This document shows positions 1-8,953 of a stretch of DNA of 36,436 bases, in pieces (the first letter of the stretch is position 1; every line of letters starts with the position of its first letter). The notes beneath the pieces are model-generated. The model saw only the letters and a program-made list of their open reading frames with translations, did no database searches and was not told the origin of the DNA. The stretch is from Actinomycetes bacterium. Lineage in GTDB: Bacteria; Actinomycetota; Acidimicrobiia; Acidimicrobiales; Poriferisodalaceae. The DNA lies in NCBI GenBank assembly GCA_024228575.1, contig JAAETH010000292.1, forward strand, positions 1-36,436, read 5' to 3'. The position numbers and the translations under genes are program-made.

Positions 1-39
1 ACACTCGTACGGTTCGAGTGGGAGACGCTCTCGCAGTAG
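1..39 (+). CDS. possible 3' end of a gene cut by the window edge
   Basis: Reading from base 1, twelve codons (TLVRFEWETLSQ) run to a TAG at 37-39. Most third positions are G or C, as in the real genes of the window, so this could be the tail of an upstream plus-strand gene. The other two plus frames are also open here, to 59 and to 127. The frame ending at 127 would run through the 32-bp repeat and stop inside the hairpin at 123-153. The correct frame cannot be settled from this fragment. Confidence 0.25.
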   Translation, partial: TLVRFEWETLSQ

Positions 40-87
40 ACTGGTTAACCCGACATTGAATCGCGCACTAGGATCTCACGTACGCGG

Positions 88-119
88 GGAGTTCGAAAGA
101 CATCGCATGACTTCCGCCA
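88..119 (+). repeat. left copy of 32-bp direct repeat flanking the protease/META pair
   Basis: These 32 bases recur at 2765-2796 with one difference (G at 105, T at 2782). Identity stops immediately outside both ends. Each copy is followed by a hairpin: 4 bases downstream here and 15 bases downstream at the right copy. An 11-base piece, AGTTCGAAAGA (90-100), is also present inverted at 196-206. What the repeat does is unknown; it could be a recombination site, a duplicated gene end or a regulatory element. Confidence 0.85.
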
Positions 120-122
120 CGC

Positions 123-153
123 ACTGACCAGGGGCCTTCCACCCCTGGTCAGT
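123..153 (+). terminator. 12-bp perfect hairpin, terminator-like
   Basis: ACTGACCAGGGG (123-134) pairs perfectly with CCCCTGGTCAGT (142-153) around a 7-base loop. A short T-rich stretch (GTTTTG) follows within about 7 bases. It would end transcription of the gene entering from the left and insulate the protease promoter. It lies just after the left 32-bp repeat. Confidence 0.7.
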
Positions 154-252
154 TGACGTTTTGAGGGCGGTTGGTCGGCATGGGGCGTTTGTGGCTCTTT
201 CGAACTGTCCTGACCCGCAGGCCCTGCTCTCCTTGCTGATCAGCGGATAGCG

Positions 253-294
253 CTGGACGTCCAGGCTCTGGGGGGGGGTACCGTCCTTTATAGA
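253..294 (+). promoter_or_regulatory. protease upstream region: palindrome, G9 tract and -10-like box
   Basis: A perfect 12-bp palindrome, CTGGACGTCCAG (253-264), could be an operator or a small hairpin. Nine consecutive Gs follow (270-278), then a TATAGA-like -10 candidate at 289-294, 23 bases before the start codon. No convincing -35 box is visible at normal spacing. A homopolymeric G run between promoter elements could vary in length by slippage. A strong Shine-Dalgarno, GGAGGG (303-308), lies 8 bases before the ATG at 317. Confidence 0.4.
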
Positions 295-316
295 GCGTCT
301 ACGGAGGGAGTCGGTC

Positions 317-2152
317 ATGAGGTGGCTGCGTTCTGGTGCGGTGATGGTGGCTTGTATGGTCGGCGCGGCGGTGTTGGCCGTGCCGTCGACAGCTGCTGAG
401 GTTGCGACTGGCGAAGGGCGGCAGGAGGAGGTCCCAGAGGACATCTTCATGTCTGAAGATGAGGTGAACGAAGAACTCGTCGCCGACATCGATTGGAGCG
501 CTTGGTCGGACCGGCGCGCCGAGCATGGCCTTTCTCCGTTGCGAGCCGACGATCTGAGCTTGAAGGAGAAGGTTGAGATCCTTGCTCGTGAGGCCAGGTT
601 TGACATGCCGTTGCTGGCCCAGGAGGTCGGCGACTACGAGCGGTGGCAGGTGCAGCGGGAGCGGCTGCTTGACGAGCACACGAGGTTGGCTGGTGATGAC
701 GCCTACCTGGTGGGTCGTATAGATGAACGCCGGCTTGTTCTTGACGTGTGGATGCGCGAGGGATGGTCGGGAGCGGTTGGTCAAGGAATCTCCGTGCATC
801 GAACGGCGTTCAGTCGCGGTGATGTGGTGCCGCTCGTGGAGGCGATTCAGAAGCTCCCAGCTGAAGCGTTTGGTAGCAGTGTTGAGATTGACGCGATCCG
901 GGTTGGGGAGTATGGCGTCCGCGTAGAGTTGTCATCCCCCGAGGGAGTGGAGGTTCCCAGACAGGCCGTGAATCGAGGGTTGTCAGCCGTTGAAGCGGCA
1001 CGCCGATCACTCGGCGATCCGATGAATCATGTTCCGGTCGAGTTGAGCGCTGTCGAACATCGGCCTGTGGTTGATGCGTACTGCCTGAGCAGAAACCGGT
1101 GTCCGAATGTTCAGGGTGGGATGCGTGACTTCAGCAACGAATGTTCCTCGGGGTTCGTGCTTCGCAATGGCAACAATCGTGCGATCTCCACAGCGGGTCA
1201 CTGTGCGGGGTCGTTCACAAGATTCGGACTGATCGGACCGGACACCAACACGTCCGGCAACCAGGCCTTCGCTCCGAACTTCACGTCTGCGCGTGCGCCT
1301 CGCAACGATGGGTTCCATGATATTTGGGCCACGGAGAACGCTGACAGTGACTCGCTCGTTCCGACCCATTTTCGCGATCAAAACTACGGCAACAGGCCTG
1401 TCACAGCGTTTCGGGTGAGCCCGCCTCAGGGTCTCGAGGTGTGCGTGTCCGCACGGCTGCGCCTCGAACGGCGCTGCGGAATCATCACTGATGCCGCGTT
1501 CACCAACAACGACACCTTCGGGTGGCTGGAGATCGACTTCGCCCACAACGGAAACCAGGTCGGAGTCCAGGGCGGTGACTCGGGCGGCTCGGTGACCGAG
1601 CGAAACAACTCGTCAAGGGCCGTCGCGACCGTGGCAAACGCTGGAGGCCCGGCGCTTGCGACGTTTGGATTCCGATGGGGCTTCTTTCCTCGGGTTGACC
1701 CGATCCCGCTGCACTACGGCGGCTGGGCAATCCGAACCGGCAACCTCACCACAACGTTGTGGGAGAGCTTCATCGCCGGCCTATACCAGACAGCACTCCA
1801 ACGGCGAGCCAACGTCGGCGAGATCAACGGGTGGGTCAGCCAGTACTCGTCGGGCTCGTGCAGCTCCAACGCCAAGTTCCAGATCGAGTTCTTCATGAAG
1901 TCGAACGAGCTGCGCACCGGCGTGCCCCTGACAAGTCTGACCGCGGCGCAACGTCGAGTACGACGGCTGTACTGGTCAGCGTTCGGACGAGCCGCCGATC
2001 CAGGTGGGCTGACGTACTGGGCCAACCGGATCCACAACGCTTCCAACCGAGAAGCAGAATGGACGTGGGTGGTCGACTACTTCAAGAACTCATCAGAGAC
2101 CAACGTGCGAATCATCTCGCGCCGGAACCAAGAATGGGGCCCTTGTTCATGA
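317..2152 (+). CDS. secreted trypsin-like (S1) serine protease with C-terminal DUF4214 region
   Basis: A 611-aa exported protease. Residues 1-27 look like a signal peptide (basic start, hydrophobic core, cleavage near PSTAA). Residues about 30-250 are a charged pro-region. The chymotrypsin-fold domain covers about 255-475: catalytic His295 in STAGHC, probable Asp335 in HDIWATE and Ser422 in GGDSGGS. Six Cys (256, 262, 276, 296, 376, 387) suggest disulfides, with 276/296 in the usual His-loop position. Residues about 485-600 resemble DUF4214 ('LYQTALQR', 'YWSAFGRAADPGGLTYW'), a module seen in extracellular actinobacterial and cyanobacterial proteins. The start is fixed by the good Shine-Dalgarno at 303-308 and the signal peptide. 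The stop overlaps the next gene by 4 bp. Substrate is unknown; autocatalytic removal of the pro-region is inferred from family behaviour. Confidence 0.9.
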   Translation: MRWLRSGAVMVACMVGAAVLAVPSTAAEVATGEGRQEEVPEDIFMSEDEVNEELVADIDWSAWSDRRAEHGLSPLRADDLSLKEKVEILAREARFDMPLLAQEVGDYERWQVQRERLLDEHTRLAGDDAYLVGRIDERRLVLDVWMREGWSGAVGQGISVHRTAFSRGDVVPLVEAIQKLPAEAFGSSVEIDAIRVGEYGVRVELSSPEGVEVPRQAVNRGLSAVEAARRSLGDPMNHVPVELSAVEHRPVVDAYCLSRNRCPNVQGGMRDFSNECSSGFVLRNGNNRAISTAGHCAGSFTRFGLIGPDTNTSGNQAFAPNFTSARAPRNDGFHDIWATENADSDSLVPTHFRDQNYGNRPVTAFRVSPPQGLEVCVSARLRLERRCGIITDAAFTNNDTFGWLEIDFAHNGNQVGVQGGDSGGSVTERNNSSRAVATVANAGGPALATFGFRWGFFPRVDPIPLHYGGWAIRTGNLTTTLWESFIAGLYQTALQRRANVGEINGWVSQYSSGSCSSNAKFQIEFFMKSNELRTGVPLTSLTAAQRRVRRLYWSAFGRAADPGGLTYWANRIHNASNREAEWTWVVDYFKNSSETNVRIISRRNQEWGPCS

Positions 2153-2664
2153 ACCGAGGCCTGACGCTGGCAGCAGTCCTGTTGCTCGGGGGCTGTACCT
2201 CGGACTCACCGGAACCCGCCCCTGCCGCGTCGGTGTCATCATCAACTTCGACGACGGTCCCTGACGCGGCGTCGGCGTGGGGTCACAGATACGTACTCGA
2301 CGAGGCCACGATCAATGGCAATCCCTGGTCACCTGGCGGGGGAAGAGAACTCAGAGTCGAGATGCGAAGCGGCCTCTCAATGCGCTGGGGCGTCGGATGC
2401 AACGAGGCTCACAGTGTTCGCTCCAACGAAGATCCTTCGATCATCGACCAACGGTGGAGCCGCGAGCTGCAAGACTGTGGAAGTGTTGTGAACGGCGAGG
2501 AGGACGTCGTTAACACCTTCATGACCGAACGCCTCTCGGTAACTGCACTCGAGGACGGCAGTGTCCGGCTCGAATCCACCGAGACCGACTCAACCATGAA
2601 CCTCGATCGGTCCGACTGGGAAACGCTCCACCAAGAGGCAGCCCAACCAGAACCCACCACCTGA
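2149..2664 (+). CDS. META-domain lipoprotein coupled to the protease
   Basis: A 171-aa lipoprotein. The ATG at 2149 overlaps the protease stop as ATGA. The frame is open much further upstream (to 1759), but that part is Arg-rich shadow of the protease, and the signal peptide MNRGLTLAAVLLLGGC begins exactly at 2149. The lipobox ends at Cys16, so the mature protein should sit on the outer face of the membrane. After a Ser/Thr/Pro linker (17-42), residues about 45-155 match the META/HslJ pattern: GCN (83-85), a second Cys (110) and a conserved 'FMTERL' helix. The META family (HslJ, Leishmania Meta1) has no agreed biochemical function. Overlap with a secreted protease suggests a partner role such as inhibitor, anchor or folding aid; that is inference. 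Confidence 0.8.
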   Translation: MNRGLTLAAVLLLGGCTSDSPEPAPAASVSSSTSTTVPDAASAWGHRYVLDEATINGNPWSPGGGRELRVEMRSGLSMRWGVGCNEAHSVRSNEDPSIIDQRWSRELQDCGSVVNGEEDVVNTFMTERLSVTALEDGSVRLESTETDSTMNLDRSDWETLHQEAAQPEPTT

Positions 2665-2764
2665 CCTCAGCCCCACCATGCCGCCGGCCGATCTGTGCGG
2701 TCCAATCAAATGGTCACCCGTTTCGACGAGACCGCAGCTCGAAGGCAACCAAAGCTGGCCACCC

Positions 2765-2796
2765 GGAGTTCGAAAGACATCTCATGACTTCCGCCA
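2765..2796 (+). repeat. right copy of 32-bp direct repeat
   Basis: Matches 88-119 at 31 of 32 positions. It lies 100 bp after the META lipoprotein stop and is followed by the hairpin at 2811-2843. With the left copy it brackets a segment of about 2.7 kb holding exactly two complete genes. Confidence 0.85.
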
Positions 2797-2810
2797 ATAG
2801 ACCCAAGTCC

Positions 2811-2843
2811 GAACCCCGGCGCCCCTTGTAGGCGGCGGGGTTC
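2811..2843 (+). terminator. GC-rich hairpin downstream of the META lipoprotein
   Basis: GAACCCCGGCGCC (2811-2823) pairs with GGCGGCGGGGTTC (2831-2843), 12 of 13 pairs around a 7-base loop, then TTCC. It is the probable terminator of the protease/META transcript. The repeat-then-hairpin order is the same as at 88-153. Confidence 0.65.
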
Positions 2844-3073
2844 TTCCAATCCATGGGTAGTGGCCCTGTGGGCCACCCCAGTGGGCGTCAGTCAATGGCT
2901 CGGACCATGTCGGACCAGGTCCCTGCTGGTGAGCGCTTGACGACAACAGCAACTCGGGGATCATCCCAGGCTGATGTCTGGGCCTGACCTCGACTCGTCG
3001 TTGAGCTCGCGCGTGCGGTCGGGCTGCTGACGTTTCGCGCTGCGGCTCAGGAGGCGACCGCTTCTGAAGCCGC
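2844..3073. other. non-coding stretch with a possible broken reading frame
   Basis: The whole gap between genes is 2665-3073; after the right repeat and hairpin I see no intact gene. One plus-strand frame from an ATG at 2895 is protein-like (30 codons, 'SDQVPAGERLTTTATR') but is broken by TGA at 2985-2987. It resumes with 'VVELARAVGLLTFRAAAQ' and runs to TAG at 3096-3098, inside the tail of the convergent hydrolase. It could be a gene remnant or chance. No strong hairpin or promoter is visible here. Confidence 0.35.
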
Positions 3074-4210
3074 TCAGGTGCTCATGAGGGCTTGGTAGGA
3101 AGCCATCACGAGTGTTGCGCTTCGCAGATCGCCCAGAAGGTCGGCGGCCATCTTGTTCATCACGTAGCTGACGGTCATCTGATTGTCGAGGTCGGTGAGC
3201 GCAAGCGATCCGCCCCAGCCTCCCCAGAAGAAGGATCGCGGGCTCGGGAGAGGCAGCGACTCGCTCGAGAGCCCGAATCCCAACCCGAAGCGCATCGGCA
3301 CGCCGAGCACCAGGTCGGTGCCCTCGATCTGGGGGTCGAGGATCGACTCGACCGTCTCGGGTCTCATGAGCGTGACGCCGTCGAGGGTGCCGCCGCAGGC
3401 GAGGGCAGCGTGAACCCGGCCAACCGACCGTGCATTTCCGAAACCACCGGCGGCCGGAATCTCGGACGCACGCCACTCGCGGGTGCGCGGTTCGGTTCCG
3501 TCGAGCGCGGCGGATGCAAACGTGCGGAACGCGAGAGAATCTTCATCGACCTCGGCCATCTGGTTGGCAAGACCATCTGGTGGCGGGACCAATTCGCCAC
3601 ACCGGTGGTCGTGTTCTGGCCCGAAGCCGATGTGGAAATCGGCGCCGAGTGGTTCGGCGATCTCCTGGCGGAAGAAGGTGCCGAGTGAGCGGCCGTCCAC
3701 ACGACGCACGATCTCGCCCATAAGGTTCCCGTGGGTGACGGCGTGATAGCCGGACGCGGTGCCGGGCTGCCACCACGGTTCCTGGGCGGCAAGCTGCTGC
3801 GCTCGGGCATCCCAGTCGTAGAGGTCGGACGCGGCGAGGGGTCGATCGAAGCCCGACAATCCCGATGTGTGGCTCATCACCTGAGCGACCGTGATGTCTT
3901 CCTTGCCGGCGGCGGCGAACTCGGGCCAGTACCTCGCGACGGGAGCCCCTACGTCGACCAGGCCACGATCCACACACATCATCAGGGCGGTCGTTGTCAT
4001 GGTCTTGGTGGTGGAGTACACGTTGACGATGGTGTCCTCCACCCACGGATCACCAGCCGGGTTTGCGTCGCCCGCCCACAGGTCGACCACCGGCCTGCCA
4101 GCGACGGTGATGTACACCGACGCCCCAAGTTCCTCGTCGCGTTCGAAGTTGCCGACGAACGCATCCCGAACCGGTTCCCAACCACTGTCGCAATTGCCGC
4201 TGATGTCCAT
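3074..4210 (-). CDS. class-C beta-lactamase-fold serine hydrolase / esterase (EstB-like)
   Basis: 378 aa, the usual size for this family. The SxxK nucleophile motif is S66-TT-K69 in 'VYSTTKT'. A family-type Tyr (155) follows in 'SGYHAVTHG', and the third motif is the esterase-type 'WGGWGGS' (329-335) in place of KTG. 'SHTSGLSG' (113-120) is also typical. Members are carboxylesterases, beta-lactamase-like hydrolases or peptidases; the substrate cannot be told from sequence. There is no signal peptide, so it is probably cytoplasmic. It is preceded by the cupin terminator at 4281-4307 and is probably transcribed alone. Only a weak purine stretch (GGGGAT) precedes the ATG. Confidence 0.9.
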   Translation of the reverse strand: MDISGNCDSGWEPVRDAFVGNFERDEELGASVYITVAGRPVVDLWAGDANPAGDPWVEDTIVNVYSTTKTMTTTALMMCVDRGLVDVGAPVARYWPEFAAAGKEDITVAQVMSHTSGLSGFDRPLAASDLYDWDARAQQLAAQEPWWQPGTASGYHAVTHGNLMGEIVRRVDGRSLGTFFRQEIAEPLGADFHIGFGPEHDHRCGELVPPPDGLANQMAEVDEDSLAFRTFASAALDGTEPRTREWRASEIPAAGGFGNARSVGRVHAALACGGTLDGVTLMRPETVESILDPQIEGTDLVLGVPMRFGLGFGLSSESLPLPSPRSFFWGGWGGSLALTDLDNQMTVSYVMNKMAADLLGDLRSATLVMASYQALMST

Positions 4211-4280
4211 ACGATCCCCGATCTGCGATACCAGGCGCGACGCTAGACCCTTGCCGGTGCTCCGACTTCATCGTCTGGGG

Positions 4281-4307
4281 CTGGGTGCGTCCCTAGAACG
4301 CACCCGG
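4281..4307 (-). terminator. hairpin after the cupin gene
   Basis: GGGTGCGT (4283-4290) pairs perfectly with ACGCACCC (4298-4305); the stem extends outward by one wobble and one C-G pair. It begins 4 bases after the cupin stop on the minus strand and separates the LysE-GNAT-cupin group from the hydrolase. There is no long T tract. Confidence 0.55.
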
Positions 4308-4311
4308 TTGC

Positions 4312-4680
4312 TCAGATGGTCAGTCGTCTGGCTGCCGTCGCCTCGTCGCCCGTGTTGGGCGTGCCAGAGGGCTCGATCAGCAACAGCTCGGCTTCTTCAG
4401 CTGCGAACGGCTGGTGTTCGACACCGGTCGGTACGACGAAGAGTTCGCCCGGACCGAGGTGGACGTCGCCGTCGCGCATGCGGATCGTGATGTGGCCCTT
4501 CAGGACCAGGAAGAAGTCGTCGGTGTTGTCGTGATGGTGCCAGACGAACTCGCCCCGGACCTTGACGACCATCACGTCGTGTCCGTTGAACTCTGCGACC
4601 GTCCTCGGTGACCAGTGCTCGTCGAACCGGTTGAGTTTCTCTTGCAGATTGACGGCTTTGTCGGATCGAGATGTGGCCAT
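4312..4680 (-). CDS. small cupin-domain protein
   Basis: 122 aa, a single cupin_2 barrel. Motif 1 contains three consecutive His (48-50) followed by 'DNTDDFFLVLKG', and motif 2 is 'PTGVEHQP' with His89. These are the usual metal ligands. 'HHHDNTDDFF' is typical of small mannose-6-phosphate-isomerase-like cupins of unknown substrate. It lies 12 bp after the GNAT gene in the same direction and is probably the last gene of a LysE-GNAT-cupin operon ended by the hairpin at 4281-4307. Specific enzymatic activity cannot be inferred. Confidence 0.85.
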   Translation of the reverse strand: MATSRSDKAVNLQEKLNRFDEHWSPRTVAEFNGHDVMVVKVRGEFVWHHHDNTDDFFLVLKGHITIRMRDGDVHLGPGELFVVPTGVEHQPFAAEEAELLLIEPSGTPNTGDEATAARRLTI

Positions 4681-4692
4681 GCGCCGAGTCTG

Positions 4693-5172
4693 TCACCCGT
4701 CGGGCAACCCGGTCGCTCGTTCGAACCAGGTGTCGTTGCCGTACTCGCTGTCGGCCTCGTGGGTGATCTCGAATCCGCAGGCGAGGTAGAAGTTGATGAC
4801 CTCGGTCCAGCCGCTGGTGGTCTCGAGCACAACACGGCTCTTGCCCCACGATCTCGCCGTGGCCATCAGTTCTTCGACTATCCGACGTCCGACACCCGAG
4901 CGCTGTAGGTCGCGTGCCACCGACATGCGAACGATCATGGCCGCATCGGTCGACCCCTTTTCGTCCGTCCACGGAAACAACGTTCCCGTACCAACGACCG
5001 AACCTTGTTCGGAACGAACCACGACCGTTCGTCCAAGGGCGTAGATCGACAACATGTCGTCGAGGTCGGGATTCAGCGACTCGTCGATGGAGCCCCAGTG
5101 GTCGCCGAGCCCGGTGAGGATCAGCCGCCGTACTTCATGCTGGTTGGCCGCATCGAGATCCTCGAAGTACAT
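4693..5172 (-). CDS. GNAT family N-acetyltransferase
   Basis: 159 aa, a single GNAT domain. The acetyl-CoA loop is 'RDLQRSGVGRR' (87-97, Q/RxxGxG/A), followed by 'VLETTSGWTEVINFYLACGF' (115-134), the usual motif-B strand and helix. The frame stays open far upstream, but that is shadow of the LysE gene; the start chosen is the ATG at 5172-5170, which overlaps the LysE stop as TGATG. Coupling to an amino-acid-exporter-type gene suggests acetylation of a small amine or amino acid, which is inference. Confidence 0.85.
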   Translation of the reverse strand: MYFEDLDAANQHEVRRLILTGLGDHWGSIDESLNPDLDDMLSIYALGRTVVVRSEQGSVVGTGTLFPWTDEKGSTDAAMIVRMSVARDLQRSGVGRRIVEELMATARSWGKSRVVLETTSGWTEVINFYLACGFEITHEADSEYGNDTWFERATGLPDG

Positions 5173-5810
5173 CAACTCGACGATACCCGGCCTCCGAAAG
5201 CGGTGATCAGTCCCAGGCTGATGTACGAGACACCCGCCACGAGGTCCCTGCGTCGCGCCAGTTCGGGTGAGTTGCCGAATCGTTCGCTGACCCATCCCGC
5301 CGCCAGTGCGTACCCCCCGTCGCTGAGGAGGCCCAGAACGATGAACACAATCCCCAGCACCAGGAGCTGGGAGGTCGTATGCCCCGCGGACACATCTACG
5401 AACTGGGGTACGAACGCAAGGAAGAACACCGCCGTCTTGGGGTTCAGCACGTTCAACACCACCGCATCGGTGAAGACCCGTCTGGTGCTCCAAGACTCGT
5501 CGACGCTGACCTCTGTGTCGACCGGCTTGGGTAACAGCGCCCTGATGCCGAGGTAGATCAGGTAGCTGGCACCGGCCAGCTTGACCGTCGAGAACGCGGT
5601 CGCCGAGGCGACGACGATTGCCGACAGGCCCGCGGCTGCGGCCGCTATGTGGACCAATGTGCCGACGTGGACTCCGGCCACGGATACGAGGGCGGCACGC
5701 CTGCCCTGGGTGGCGCCCCGAGCGACGATGTAGAGAACTGCGGGGCCGGGGATTATCAGCAGCAACAGGGCGGCTCCCGAGAACAGGATGAGAGTCGATG
5801 CTGCGGGCAT
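5172..5810 (-). CDS. LysE/RhtB family amino-acid exporter
   Basis: 212 aa, the standard size for LysE/RhtB translocators, with about six hydrophobic segments. The N-terminal signature is 'LLLLIIPGPAVLYIVARG' with the conserved PGP, followed by a 'ATQGRRAALVSVAGVHVG' loop and 'NPKTAVFFLAFVPQFV'. Members export amino acids or related metabolites by proton motive force. It is translationally coupled to the downstream GNAT (one-base overlap) and 59 bp from the upstream metallopeptidase, so it probably heads the LysE-GNAT-cupin operon. Substrate unknown. Confidence 0.9.
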   Translation of the reverse strand: MPAASTLILFSGAALLLLIIPGPAVLYIVARGATQGRRAALVSVAGVHVGTLVHIAAAAAGLSAIVVASATAFSTVKLAGASYLIYLGIRALLPKPVDTEVSVDESWSTRRVFTDAVVLNVLNPKTAVFFLAFVPQFVDVSAGHTTSQLLVLGIVFIVLGLLSDGGYALAAGWVSERFGNSPELARRRDLVAGVSYISLGLITAFGGRVSSS

Positions 5811-5869
5811 CGACGAACCCTAGCCGTGGTGCTCGTGGCCGATGCCGGCAATAGTCGGCCCTTGTCGAA

Positions 5870-7933
5870 CTACACCGGAACGGGCGTGCACCGCGGGAGC
5901 TCAGCGTCGAGTTTCTCTCGCCACGTTTCGAAGCGTTTGCGCCGTCTGCGGCGCCTGACCCGCCAGATGACGAGGATGACGAGCAGCAACAGGACAACAC
6001 CTGCGATGGCGCCACCGAGCTTCGCCCTGAACAACCCCACGTCCTCGGCATCGTCGAGGAGTGCTCGAAGCTGTGCTGCCTCGACATCGACAAGATCGGG
6101 GTCGCCGGCGTCGTAGGCCGATCGGACCTCGAGCAACTCGGCATCGGGGTCTTGTCCCCACAAGCCGAGCTGTTCGAGAAGCGAAGGCTCGACCTTGGAG
6201 CGTTCGGTGATCGACTCGACGACGGCGATCGCTTCGAGCCAGCGTGTGATCCTCGCTTCCGAGGACGAATAGCTGTCGAAGGTGCGTTCGAAAATGCCTT
6301 CGCCGACCGCCGGGTCGTTCAGCGTGGCTGCTTCGGAGCGTGTTGTCAGCTCGTCTCGCAAGGCCAACACCGCCAGCCCTTCGTCGACCAGGCGCTCGAT
6401 GTCCTCGAAATCCCACCGTTCGGCACGTTCGCGGATACCTAGTGGAACGAACCACTCGCCGCCTGCCTCGGTCAGGCGAGCGATGTCGTCGAGGGCTTCC
6501 CTTCGTCCGGCGAGCAGGTCGACCTCGCTCCCGAGCAGGACGTACTCGCTCAACACATCCTCGAACCCAGTGGAGCCAGCGAGGTGCTCGGAGACGTCGA
6601 GCAAACGTTTCCAGTCGACCGGCCTGTCGGTGCTGCCGTCGCCCTCTTCGTCGGGATATGTGGCGGTGCCGTCGAAGAGGGCCACCACGATGTTGTCCAT
6701 CAGGTCGGGGCCGACCTCGTCGGACAGCTGGTACATGACCCAAGAGGATGTGCTGTAGCCCCAGTTCTCGGTCTCGTCGCTGGACATCATGTTGGACCAT
6801 GTGTTCAGCTGGCGGGAGAACGAGGCGGGTTCGGGTTCTTCGGGTTTGGGCGCCTCTGCTCCGAGTTCGAGAGCCGCCAGGCGTGCAAACTCCTCGGCCA
6901 TCGCCTCGGTGATCCAGCGGTCATCGGACAAGCCGTCGTTGAACCATGCGTGGCCGAGCTCGTGCAGGAAGATGGCGGTGTCGAGGTCCTCATCGATGAC
7001 GATGCGGCCCTCGTCGCCGTCGTACCAACCGGCGTACCCGTGGAAGTTCGGTTCCGACGATTGGATGATCTCGAAGTCCTTGTCCTCGGGCCAGGGTTTG
7101 CCTATCAGGCGCTCGAGGGTCGGGATGCCTTCTCTGGCCGTCTCGACGGCGAACTCTTCCCACTCGTCGTCGCCTGGCCAGGACCGAATCGTGACCATCG
7201 ACCCGGCGACCAGTATCGACCGTGGATCCAGTGCACCATCGTTGCGGGCGATGACGGTTACGAAGAAGTCGTCGGGATCGTCGATGTCTGTGGCCGAATA
7301 GACACTCCCGCCCGACTCGGTGTTCTCACTACGCATGTGGCTACCGGTCGTCTCGATCTCGAAGCCGGGAGGCAGCTCTATCGTGACGTCTAGTTGGCCC
7401 GGATCGGCTATTCCCCATGCACCGAAGAAGGCGTAGGCCGGGTTGATCCGGTCGATGAATTCGCTCCGTGGTTGTGAGCCTTCGATCCGGTAGCTGGCCA
7501 CGACGGTGGTTGTGCGGCCGTAGTTGAGATTGCGGCGGAAGGTGACCGCGGCGTAGGCGAATTCGCCTCCCTCGATCTCCTCGCCGTCGATCACTTCGGT
7601 TTCGTACTCCTCGGTGACCAGTTCGTAGGTGAGGTCTGAACTCCCGTCGGTCACCAACAGGTCGACAGCGTTGTCGGGAACCGGTACCGCGAACCCGTCG
7701 AAGTAGTACGAGTAGATCGTGTAGCCCGATCGACGGTTCGCCTTGACATTCTTCAATGTGAATGTCGCCTCGACGGTCAACTGACCCTGTGGGTCGAGCC
7801 TGTATGCGTAGGCAGCATCGACGCTCAAGCCATCGGAGGCCTCAGCGCTACGGCTTCCGACTCCGGTCGCCACCGCCACGGCCACCAGGAGCACGGCGCC
7901 GATCGTGAGGCGCGCAACCATCGAACTCAACAT
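5870..7933 (-). CDS. membrane-anchored gluzincin-like metallopeptidase (M1-related)
   Basis: About 687 aa from the ATG at 7933; ATGs at 7960, 7957 and 7921 are alternatives and none has a clear Shine-Dalgarno. Frame continuing above 7960 is shadow of the divergent GGDEF gene. A signal peptide or N-terminal anchor lies at about 5-25. A beta-rich region (35-250) precedes the zinc site HELGH (324-328). The third ligand is probably Glu343 in 'WITEAMAEE', 14 residues after the second His, shorter than the 18 of classical M1 enzymes; Glu347 would give exactly 18. A C-terminal helix (about 641-657) and 'RVRRRRRRKRF' anchor it, with the catalytic domain outside. The role could be surface peptide processing. 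Confidence 0.85.
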   Translation of the reverse strand: MLSSMVARLTIGAVLLVAVAVATGVGSRSAEASDGLSVDAAYAYRLDPQGQLTVEATFTLKNVKANRRSGYTIYSYYFDGFAVPVPDNAVDLLVTDGSSDLTYELVTEEYETEVIDGEEIEGGEFAYAAVTFRRNLNYGRTTTVVASYRIEGSQPRSEFIDRINPAYAFFGAWGIADPGQLDVTIELPPGFEIETTGSHMRSENTESGGSVYSATDIDDPDDFFVTVIARNDGALDPRSILVAGSMVTIRSWPGDDEWEEFAVETAREGIPTLERLIGKPWPEDKDFEIIQSSEPNFHGYAGWYDGDEGRIVIDEDLDTAIFLHELGHAWFNDGLSDDRWITEAMAEEFARLAALELGAEAPKPEEPEPASFSRQLNTWSNMMSSDETENWGYSTSSWVMYQLSDEVGPDLMDNIVVALFDGTATYPDEEGDGSTDRPVDWKRLLDVSEHLAGSTGFEDVLSEYVLLGSEVDLLAGRREALDDIARLTEAGGEWFVPLGIRERAERWDFEDIERLVDEGLAVLALRDELTTRSEAATLNDPAVGEGIFERTFDSYSSSEARITRWLEAIAVVESITERSKVEPSLLEQLGLWGQDPDAELLEVRSAYDAGDPDLVDVEAAQLRALLDDAEDVGLFRAKLGGAIAGVVLLLLVILVIWRVRRRRRRKRFETWREKLDAELPRCTPVPV

Positions 7934-8050
7934 CAGGTGACTTCGTCCCACCGGCATCATTGCTGAATACTTTGACAGAAGTGGTGGATCGAGTCGTGGA
8001 CTCGACCAAGCCCTGGCCTTGCTTGGGTTCATAGCGACCTCCGGCAGCCG

Positions 8051-8953
8051 ATGGGAACGGTGATGTTGTCCCACCGACCGCGCGATGCGAAGGCGCAGAC
8101 CTTTTCGGAGGCCTGCAGCCGGTTGGTGCGTCAGCTTCGGATCGCCGTGAATGTCCAGACGGTGGCTTCGGTCGTCGTGGAGGGTTCGGACGCTCGCATC
8201 GAGTTCGTCGATGACTATGGCTTCAGGCTGCAGCAGGGCGACGTCTTGCTCGATTCCGAGCGGTGGACGGTTTCCGATGTCAGGAACAGTCCATCGCGTG
8301 CCCTCACCGAGGCGGGGCGCGGTTTCTCGGTTGGATGTGTGGTGGTGGTGGCGCTGCCGGAGATGGATGGTGAACGACGCGCTCTCGTGATGCTCGATCC
8401 CGTACCGCGGCGCGATATCCCGAAACTCCAGGAGCTGGCGGTCGGCCATGCCGACATGCTCGCGACCGCTCTCGCTCTCGAATGCCGCCTCGACGAGGCC
8501 GAACACAGCTCGCTGACAGATGAGCTGACAGGCGTCGGGAACCGCAGGGCGTGGGGGGAGATGCTGGAGAGAGAGGAAGCACGTTGTGCACGGCACGACC
8601 TCGATGGCGCCGTTGCGATCATCGGCTTGCACGGTCTCGGGGCCACGAAGGACGCGACGCGACACTTTGTGGGGGACGAACAGCTACTGCGTGGTGCGAG
8701 GTCTCTTCTGGACTCGCTGCGTGTGTCGGACTTCGTGGCAAGGCTCGGCGGCGACAAGTTTGGTGTTGTCTTGACCCACACGAGCGGGATCTCGGCGAAA
8801 CAGGTCGTCGAGGTCCTCGACAAGCGACTTGAACACCGCGATGTGGATGCGGTGGTCGGGGCTGCCACCCGCAAGGGGTGTGGAACACTGCAGGCGGCCT
8901 GGGAAGCAGCCGATCGGGCGATGAGCGAAGCAAGTCCAAGCGGCGGGCGGTGA
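8051..8953 (+). CDS. degenerate GGDEF-domain protein with N-terminal GAF-like region
   Basis: 300 aa. Residues about 15-145 look like a sensory, GAF-type domain; about 152-290 is a GGDEF fold, recognised by 'LTDELTGVGNRRAW' (155-168) and the strand-loop 'RLGGDKF' (231-237). The catalytic motif is GGDKF, with Lys in place of the metal-binding Glu, and the upstream metal Asp of the 'D-x-D-x-F' strand is replaced ('IIGLHGLG'). It is therefore probably unable to make c-di-GMP and may bind nucleotide or act as a signalling scaffold. There are no membrane segments. It is divergent from the metallopeptidase with about 120 bp between. ATG at 8063 is an alternative start. Confidence 0.8.
   Translation: MGTVMLSHRPRDAKAQTFSEACSRLVRQLRIAVNVQTVASVVVEGSDARIEFVDDYGFRLQQGDVLLDSERWTVSDVRNSPSRALTEAGRGFSVGCVVVVALPEMDGERRALVMLDPVPRRDIPKLQELAVGHADMLATALALECRLDEAEHSSLTDELTGVGNRRAWGEMLEREEARCARHDLDGAVAIIGLHGLGATKDATRHFVGDEQLLRGARSLLDSLRVSDFVARLGGDKFGVVLTHTSGISAKQVVEVLDKRLEHRDVDAVVGAATRKGCGTLQAAWEAADRAMSEASPSGGR

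What the first reader, a model, noticed from the sequence alone, without database searches (positions are those of the whole stretch)
317..2664. Trypsin-like protease translationally coupled to a META-domain lipoprotein
The ATGA overlap makes lipoprotein synthesis depend on protease translation. Secreted proteases are sometimes encoded next to an inhibitor or a dedicated chaperone. META domains have no known biochemical role, and a fixed protease-META pair would suggest one: inhibitor or membrane anchor for the protease.
Basis: partly seen in the sequence, partly recalled or inferred. Interest (0 to 1): 0.5.

Follow-up and report, generated by a model that had tools for sequence, protein, structure and literature searches.

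The report
Mobile protease–lipoprotein cassettes beside tRNA-Ser
A secreted protease gene and the small lipoprotein gene that overlaps it travel together as one unit of a tandem gene-cassette array planted at the end of a serine tRNA gene, and related bacteria carry other protease-plus-lipoprotein pairs on other mobile elements, which hints that each protease needs its own surface partner.

Summary
In detail: a 611-aa secreted S1-like protease (317-2152) overlaps a 171-aa lipoprotein (2149-2664) by ATGA. The META label is supported only indirectly. The pair is one of two paralogous pairs (A, B) in a cassette array; window 1-39 is the end of lipoprotein A. Each unit ends in a 29-nt motif (E1) whose last 7 bases, TCCGCCA, are also the 3' end of tRNA-Ser, and begins with an 86-nt motif (E2). 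On contig C105 an intact tRNA-Ser(gct) runs straight into E2 and copy A. A same-genus genome has the empty site: tRNA-Ser beside the genes that follow pair B here. In two comparisons sequence identity changes at TCCGCCA. The same elements flank a Fic gene on C202. So the pair is cargo of cassettes without their own integrase at a tRNA gene, a variant of additive flexible genomic islands. The partner need not be META: two other S1-type proteases on an integrase/relaxase contig also have overlapping lipoprotein genes, and one in a transposon-like element has a convergent one, all unrelated to META by BLASTP. I favour a cognate inhibitor/immunity or anchoring role; this is inferred.

The parts
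1..39 (+). 3' end (12 codons and stop) of the lipoprotein gene of the upstream paralogous pair A
   Evidence: 39/39 identical to L011 and L012; window 1-282 aligns to L011 2987-3268 at 99.3%; L011 2519-3025 is the lipoprotein A ORF.
91..119 (+). E1 element ending unit A; core TCCGCCA at 113-119
   Evidence: 32-nt direct repeat with 2765-2796; 2 matches in the window, 0 of 100 shuffles reach 2; core invariant in alignment with two tRNA 3' ends.
120..205 (+). E2 element opening unit B: terminator-like hairpin 124-152 and terminal CTTTCGAAC (inverted repeat of GTTCGAAAG)
   Evidence: Alignments A5, A6; fold; flank-shuffle control.
317..2152 (+). Secreted S1-like serine protease B, 611 aa: signal peptide, alpha-lytic-type pro region (about 452-1066), S1-like domain (about 1103-1726; His295 at 1199-1201, Ser422 at 1580-1582), DUF4214 region (about 1748-2125)
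2149..2664 (+). Small META-like lipoprotein B, 171 aa, lipobox Cys16, ATGA overlap with the protease
2768..2796 (+). E1 element ending unit B; core TCCGCCA at 2790-2796; right end of the array, at the place of the tRNA-Ser 3' end in the empty site of G004
2811..2843 (+). Native terminator-like hairpin, counterpart of the one directly behind tRNA-Ser in G004
4714..8544 (-). Native flank (GNAT, LysE, a large protein without Pfam hit, and a GGDEF gene on +), collinear with the stretch beside tRNA-Ser in G004
   Evidence: blastn 4714-7847 vs L056 3788-720 at 68.5%, 8325-8544 vs 254-35 at 69.1%; Pfam of the window genes

Best explanation
The protease and lipoprotein genes are the cargo of a small gene cassette without an integrase of its own. 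Each cassette is bounded by E2 on the left and E1 on the right; joined in a circle these would form one attachment site (E1-E2). Site-specific recombination at the 7-bp core TCCGCCA puts cassettes at the 3' end of tRNA-Ser, leaving the tRNA intact, and successive insertions build a tandem array: tRNA-Ser, unit A, unit B, native flank. Shown: tRNA-E2-A junction, A-E1-E2-B junction, B-E1-native flank junction, empty site in a congener, identity changing at the core, the same elements around a Fic gene. Inferred: that a tyrosine recombinase acts in trans, and that C105 and C292 belong to one locus. The gene pair itself most likely encodes a secreted alpha-lytic-type protease that folds with its own pro region, plus a cognate surface lipoprotein that restrains or holds the protease at the producer's surface (inhibitor/immunity likelier than anchor). 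This last step is inference, about 0.35 likely; the cassette step about 0.75.
For: Direct repeat, 0 of 100 shuffles. tRNA-Ser(gct) on C105 directly followed by E2 and copy A. Empty site in same-genus G004: tRNA-Ser 3' end, terminator, then a stretch collinear with window 4714-8544. Changes at the core: L011 against C105, 25/61 and 12/27 identical before the core, then E2 86/86 and 499/500 after it; L011 against L012, 300/300 before the core, E2 69/87 after it, and 79/172 beyond E2, where random window stretches average 0.50 (ungapped counts). E elements collinear in 4 distinct copies (118 columns), TCCGCCA invariant also in two tRNA-E2 loci. Same E1/E2 around a Fic gene on C202. Lipoprotein neighbours: B overlap 4 nt, A 10 nt, G004-1 20 nt, G004-2 26 nt, G245:C428 convergent and 5 nt apart; apart from A-B no pair of the six lipoproteins compared reaches BLASTP E below 0.27. 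Pro region in cis.
Against: No recombinase was linked to the array, and integrases were not searched for genome-wide. C105 and C292 are separate contigs of a 960-contig MAG; the stretch between them is seen only in other MAGs. E1 is not a copy of the tRNA end beyond the core. E2 is alike between units, so in the L011/L012 case the change at the core is a drop from 100% to 79%, not to unrelated sequence. Window against L011 shows no change at the core: both carry E2 of unit B (86/86, then 71/72), and they part only later. The META assignment is indirect. No interaction, inhibition or localisation was measured or modelled. Copy A's protease is broken in all three MAGs (insertion in C105 and L012, in-frame stop in L011), so function of that copy is doubtful. 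In G245:C428 the lipoprotein is convergent, so cotranslation is not general.
Confidence: 0.6

Rival explanations
1. Ordinary tandem duplication: an ancestral protease-lipoprotein operon beside tRNA-Ser was duplicated by homologous recombination, and E is only a terminator region copied along with it.
For: A and B are paralogues (protease 78%, lipoprotein 58% identical) in tandem; E contains a strong terminator-like hairpin.
Against: The same E1 and E2 flank an unrelated Fic gene on C202; in L012 another sequence follows copy A behind a different E2; the congener lacks everything between core and native terminator.
Confidence: 0.15
2. The lipoprotein is a membrane anchor or surface display partner that keeps the protease at the cell.
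For: The neighbours are predicted lipoproteins (by eye) in 5 of 5 cases although of unrelated sequence apart from A-B; the DUF4214 region models like phycobilisome linker domains (3pru_D Z 9.7, 115 aligned, 3.6 A).
Against: No binding evidence; G004-2 has no Pfam DUF4214 hit yet has such a neighbour.
Confidence: 0.2
3. The lipoprotein is a functionally independent passenger; adjacency only reflects co-capture by mobile elements.
For: META lipoprotein of G225 stands without a protease in the 3.4 kb read; lipoproteins are common genes (general knowledge); few independent cases.
Against: Four same-strand overlapping pairs in two kinds of mobile setting, with lipoproteins of three unrelated types.
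Confidence: 0.25
4. The lipoprotein is a dedicated folding chaperone (foldase) for the protease.
For: Such partners exist for some secreted enzymes (general knowledge); the genes overlap.
Against: The protease carries its own alpha-lytic-type pro region, the known foldase of that family (the foldase role is general knowledge).
Confidence: 0.08
5. E elements are ends of a transposon-like (MITE or IS) element rather than a site-specific recombination site.
For: Short inverted ends GTTCGAAAG/CTTTCGAAC; transposase-like ORFs nearby, named from recall.
Against: In the junctions seen, E2 follows TCCGCCA of a tRNA or of an E1; E1 and E2 are separated by different cargos.
Confidence: 0.1

Closest known systems
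Additive flexible genomic islands (tRNA-targeted gene cassettes; Ca. Actinomarinales PMC7771536, Methylophilaceae fGI-2 PMC10872708; passages seen)
   Same: Gene cassettes inserted at tRNAs, tRNA-derived repeat at the cassette end, variable content among related genomes.
   Different: Here the repeat is a fixed 29-nt E1 that shares only a 7-bp core and partial similarity with the tRNA, paired with an 86-nt E2; cargo is a protease-lipoprotein pair.
tRNA-gene genomic islands and their tandem arrays (Islander, PMC4383910; passages seen)
   Same: Integration at a tRNA gene, tandem arrangement.
   Different: No integrase gene in unit B; the distal end is not a displaced tRNA fragment.
Integron gene cassettes (recalled)
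   Same: Small cassettes without integrase in an array, recombining at a 7-bp core in a site with inverted ends (what it works like).
   Different: tRNA-Ser in the place of attI; no attC boxes seen by eye; no clear folding beyond ends and terminator; no integrase seen beside the array.
Alpha-lytic-type S1 proteases with pro region
   Same: Pro region fold, TAGHC and GDSGGS motifs.
   Different: C-terminal DUF4214 region and an overlapping lipoprotein gene.
META/HslJ domain proteins (PF03724)
   Same: Indirect profile link.
   Different: No direct Pfam hit; low-confidence model (pLDDT 52).

Membership tests
S1 (alpha-lytic-like) secreted serine protease | His and Ser active-site motifs (TAGHC, GDSGG) | tested here: met
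   His295 and Ser422 in P0001, aligned in A2; the Asp was not assigned
S1 (alpha-lytic-like) secreted serine protease | S1 fold or Pfam trypsin-type model | tested here: inconclusive
   No Pfam S1 hit; phmmer to 5mrt E 0.09 over residues 275-468; S1 part of the AF2 model is poor
S1 (alpha-lytic-like) secreted serine protease | Alpha-lytic-type pro region | tested here: met
   Top six Foldseek rows are alpha-lytic pro regions, prob 0.99-1.00, E 6e-3 to 1.2e-2; 4pro_C Z 7.1, 143 aligned, 4.2 A. No sequence hit to the pro-domain model
META domain (PF03724) | Match to the family model | tested here: inconclusive
   No direct Pfam hit; indirect link through P0006
Additive flexible genomic island | Cassettes inserted at the 3' end of a tRNA gene | tested here: met
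   tRNA-Ser(gct)-E2-A on C105; empty site in G004
[quoted passage not shown]
   Exact for 7 bp (TCCGCCA), only similar further in
Additive flexible genomic island | Variable cassette content among related genomes | tested here: met
   C105, L011, L012, C292, C202 and G004 differ in what lies before or after the core
tRNA genomic island as in Islander | Own integrase in each unit | tested here: not met
   Unit B (window 120-2796) is filled by the two genes; no further credible ORF by reading
Integron | attC site folding into a long imperfect hairpin | tested here: inconclusive
   Flanks of the terminator shuffled whole: win_E 14/300 (RNA) and 2/300 (DNA), C202 1/300 (RNA) as stable or more; with the 9-bp ends kept 22 to 295 of 300 in 4 copies, RNA and DNA, so nothing clear beyond the inverted ends
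Integron | IntI integrase | not tested

The most novel reading that the evidence does not exclude
A tRNA-Ser-anchored cassette system, working like an integron with the tRNA 3' end as the landing site, that mobilises effector-immunity-like modules: secreted alpha-lytic-type proteases each with a private, quickly replaced surface lipoprotein that protects the producer, exchanged between families of the same class.
Probability: 0.2. Interest if true: 0.75.

Novelty: new variant of a known kind. Interest (0 to 1): 0.5.

Why it matters
It gives an exact anatomy (29-nt E1, 86-nt E2, 7-bp core, empty site) for cassettes without their own integrase at a tRNA gene, which makes the recombination directly testable. 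It also turns the question of what META and other orphan lipoproteins do into a concrete assay: whether they bind or inhibit the protease encoded next to them. If they do, secreted proteases plus lipoproteins would be a mobile effector-immunity class.

Tried and rejected
Integron attC reading of E: the first fold gave z -4.2, but the control that keeps the terminator and inverted ends shows no clear further pairing (22 to 295 of 300 shuffles at least as stable); kept only as an analogy. Rfam: no match up to E 1 in window 1-3600. tRNA in the window: none.

META by structure: model pLDDT 52; Foldseek in PDB nothing at E up to 0.001; best VIA-align row 2la7, Z 5.1, 91 aligned, 4.0 A, little above unrelated rows. 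Not used as proof.

Prodomain in the G225 META lipoprotein: weak Pfam hint at 0.047; direct comparison with the P0001 pro region gives only a short stretch, hhalign E 0.024, probability 2. Likewise P0007 against the middle of P0006, E 0.001, probability 21. Left out of the argument.

A first ungapped count for L011 against L012 after the core (29/90) overstated the change, because E2 differs by an indel; the gapped count is 69/87 and is used instead. I had first counted three comparisons as changing at the core; only two do.

E1-like pattern hits judged chance: C595 (inside a 1532-aa ORF) and, among E BLAST hits, G003:C30 (inside an ORF by the listing) and G402 (by eye). The G026 pattern hit and the G245:C55 hit were not examined further, nor C66. 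In the pattern search the backward control gave 10 matches over the 39 genomes but 0 in G000, where the pattern itself gave 5.

Viral and plasmid collections: no relative of P0001 in viral contigs (the E1 pattern also none) or plasmids; P0005 hits 5 plasmid records, over its DUF4214 part only; G004-2 none. The phage collection was not searched.

Literature: META with lipoprotein/HslJ (38 papers, 12 listed), DUF4214 (4 papers), META domain with protease inhibitor (5 papers); in the titles and abstract starts seen, none pairs a bacterial META protein with a protease. A search for sponge-associated relatives was not followed up.
Full report
What is in the sequence. The window holds a 611-aa ORF at 317-2152 and a 171-aa ORF at 2149-2664 sharing ATGA. 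The first has a signal peptide (by eye), the motifs TAGHC and GDSGGS, and a DUF4214 region (Pfam 2.3e-9). The second has a lipobox ending in Cys16 (by eye). Pfam gives no META hit for the second even at E up to 10 on the domain alone. The META label rests on a chain: the profile of copies A and B finds a lipoprotein in genome G225 (1.4e-7; hhalign probability 95.9), and that protein is Pfam META (1.2e-9). A direct BLASTP between the two is not significant.

The protease. Of the AF2 model (mean pLDDT 47) only residues about 46-250 and the C-terminal helices are usable. The first stretch matches the alpha-lytic protease pro region: the top six Foldseek rows, prob 0.99-1.00, E 6e-3 to 1.2e-2; 4pro_C Z 7.1 over 143 residues, 4.2 A. 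The DUF4214 stretch resembles phycobilisome linker domains (3pru_D Z 9.7, 115 aligned, 3.6 A). The S1 assignment itself rests on motifs and a weak sequence match (5mrt, E 0.09). Since alpha-lytic proteases fold with their pro region (general knowledge), a separate foldase is less needed.

A paralogous pair. Two MAG contigs, L011 (isolate Bpl_13) and L012 (isolate Vin_3), encode a second pair A, protease 76-78% and lipoprotein 58% identical to pair B of the window. Window 1-39 is the end of lipoprotein A, 39/39 identical to both; window 1-282 aligns to L011 at 99.3%. Copy A's protease is broken in all three MAGs: C105 of the window's own genome and L012 show the two sides of one insertion with a transposase-like gene (ISL3-like, named from recall), and L011 has an in-frame stop. 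Between A and B, identity is 65.6% in the pro part, 83.2% in the S1 part, 90.1% in the DUF4214 part and 65.3% in the META part; dN/dS is well below 1 for both genes, with dS near saturation.

The repeats and the tRNA. A 32-nt direct repeat flanks the pair (88-119 and 2765-2796). With the following 86 nt it makes an element E1-E2 of 115 nt, collinear in four distinct copies. On C105 (L008) an intact tRNA-Ser(gct) runs directly into E2 and then copy A. E1 ends in TCCGCCA, the last seven bases of tRNA-Ser, and resembles the tRNA only partly before that. In G003, another genus of the family, a tRNA-like gene that ARAGORN leaves unassigned is followed by a recognisable E2 near a contig end, and a tRNA-Ser(cga) is followed by the same terminator without a clear CTTTCGAAC end.

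The empty site. In the congener G004, contig C387, the tRNA-Ser 3' end (the contig starts inside the gene) is followed by a terminator and then by a stretch collinear with window 4714-8544 (68.5% over 4714-7847), which in the window holds GNAT, LysE, a large protein and GGDEF genes. The same kind of terminator stands directly after the second E1 of the window. Between terminator and GNAT the window has in addition a beta-lactamase-family hydrolase and a cupin. So the second E1 stands where the congener has its tRNA-Ser. The own genome shows one near-identical tRNA-Ser(gct), on C105; the other tRNA-Ser-like hits are at most 84% identical. I infer that C105 and C292 are the two ends of one locus.

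Changes at the core (gapped counts). L011 against C105: 25/61 and 12/27 before the core, then E2 86/86 and 499/500. L011 against L012: 300/300 before the core, E2 69/87 after it, 79/172 beyond E2; random window stretches average 0.50. Window against L011: 112/112 before the core, E2 86/86, then 71/72, so no change at the core here; they part later (33/64), where L011 has a transposase-like ORF (IS110-like, named from recall). Two comparisons thus change at TCCGCCA, one on either side, as expected of site-specific recombination there.

Other cargo. On C202 the order is a transposase-like ORF (IS30-like, named from recall), a matrixin-like metalloprotease (Pfam 7.8e-6), a secreted 302-aa protein, a lipoprotein, E1-E2 (3617-3731), a Fic gene on the other strand (Pfam 5.4e-16; PADLOC SoFic 2.5e-15), E1 (5222-5250). 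So the same elements carry unrelated genes.

Is E an integron site? The whole element folds well (z -4.2), but once terminator and 9-bp inverted ends are kept, shuffled flanks fold about as well in 4 of 4 copies (22 to 295 of 300). E looks more like a double-strand attachment site with inverted arm-like repeats than like attC. No recombinase was identified; integrases were not searched for genome-wide.

How general is the pair? Family search: protease in 3 of 39 genomes at E up to 1e-6, one of them (G005) only over query residues 477-540; lipoprotein in 1 of 39. Class draw: protease profile in 5 of 395 (G148 and G261 match only in the C-terminal part; the G261 ORF carries an HExxH motif by eye; G148 was fetched but not read). 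Lipoprotein profile in 15 of 395, of which only G000, G245 and G375 are this lipoprotein, G225 is a META protein, and the other 11 match partial stretches that I did not follow. Only up to 3 (protease) and 9 (lipoprotein) candidates per genome were scored, so these are lower bounds. E DNA: 4 of 395 with up to 2 candidates scored, one of them (G402) judged chance; with all candidates scored, G003, G245 and G375 of 4 named handles match, G004 not.

A wider rule. Five S1-type secreted protease genes with a readable downstream neighbour were found: A, B, two on a G004 contig that also codes for a phage-type integrase and a TrwC relaxase, and one in G245 inside a transposon-like element with terminal inverted repeats (seen by eye), a DUF4158 protein and a tyrosine recombinase. 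The G004-2 and G245 proteases carry TAKHC/GDSGGL and SAGHC/GDSGAG. Four of the five have a same-strand lipoprotein gene overlapping their 3' end (4, 10, 20, 26 nt); the fifth has a convergent lipoprotein 5 nt away. Starts were chosen by eye. Apart from A-B, the lipoproteins show no BLASTP similarity (best E 0.27 over all pairs, C202's included). One of the five (G004-2) was found by its position, not by a profile. META is therefore one of several partners. Five cases from few lineages is a small sample, and no control set of other secreted enzymes was counted.

Transfer. Copy A is about 99% identical in the window's MAG and in two MAGs placed in another family of the class. This is recent transfer or misbinning of short contigs (3.4 and 4.8 kb); I cannot tell which.

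Comparison with what is known. [quoted passage not shown] passages of PMC10872708 describe repeats of the last 20 nt of tRNA-Lys; passages of PMC4383910 describe tandem islands that each have an integrase. The present array works like these and, by analogy only, like an integron. I file it as a variant of additive flexible islands.

Verdict. The cassette array is well supported; the function of the lipoprotein as inhibitor/immunity is a hypothesis with a direct test.

Noticed in passing
L007 (own contig C202) 1499-5250: Another array stretch: matrixin-like metalloprotease, secreted 302-aa protein, lipoprotein, E1-E2, Fic gene on the opposite strand, E1.
   Followed up: partly
L059/L096 (G004 contig C77): Contig with phage-type integrase, TrwC relaxase and two S1-type secreted proteases, each with its own overlapping lipoprotein gene.
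   Followed up: partly
L071 (G245 contig C428) about 1575-8200: Transposon-like element with terminal inverted repeats (by eye) carrying an S1-DUF4214 protease, a convergent lipoprotein, a tyrosine recombinase and a DUF4158 protein.
   Followed up: partly
L008 (C105) 1-1210 and L012 1-246: Transposase-like gene inserted into the protease gene of copy A at the same place in two MAGs placed in different families; 7-8 bp at the junction are present on both sides.
   Followed up: partly
L077 456-1925 (G225): 489-aa lipoprotein with a META domain and a C-terminal stretch with a weak hint of an alpha-lytic pro domain (Pfam 0.047).
   Followed up: partly
L012 2640-3379: A different unit follows the E1 of copy A in MAG Vin_3; its genes were not identified.
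   Followed up: no
L058 (G003 contig C105): tRNA-Ser(cga) followed by the same terminator as in E2 but without a clear CTTTCGAAC end; possibly a diverged E2.
   Followed up: no
window 3074-4680: Beta-lactamase-family hydrolase and cupin genes between the array and the native flank, absent from the congener G004 at this place.
   Followed up: no
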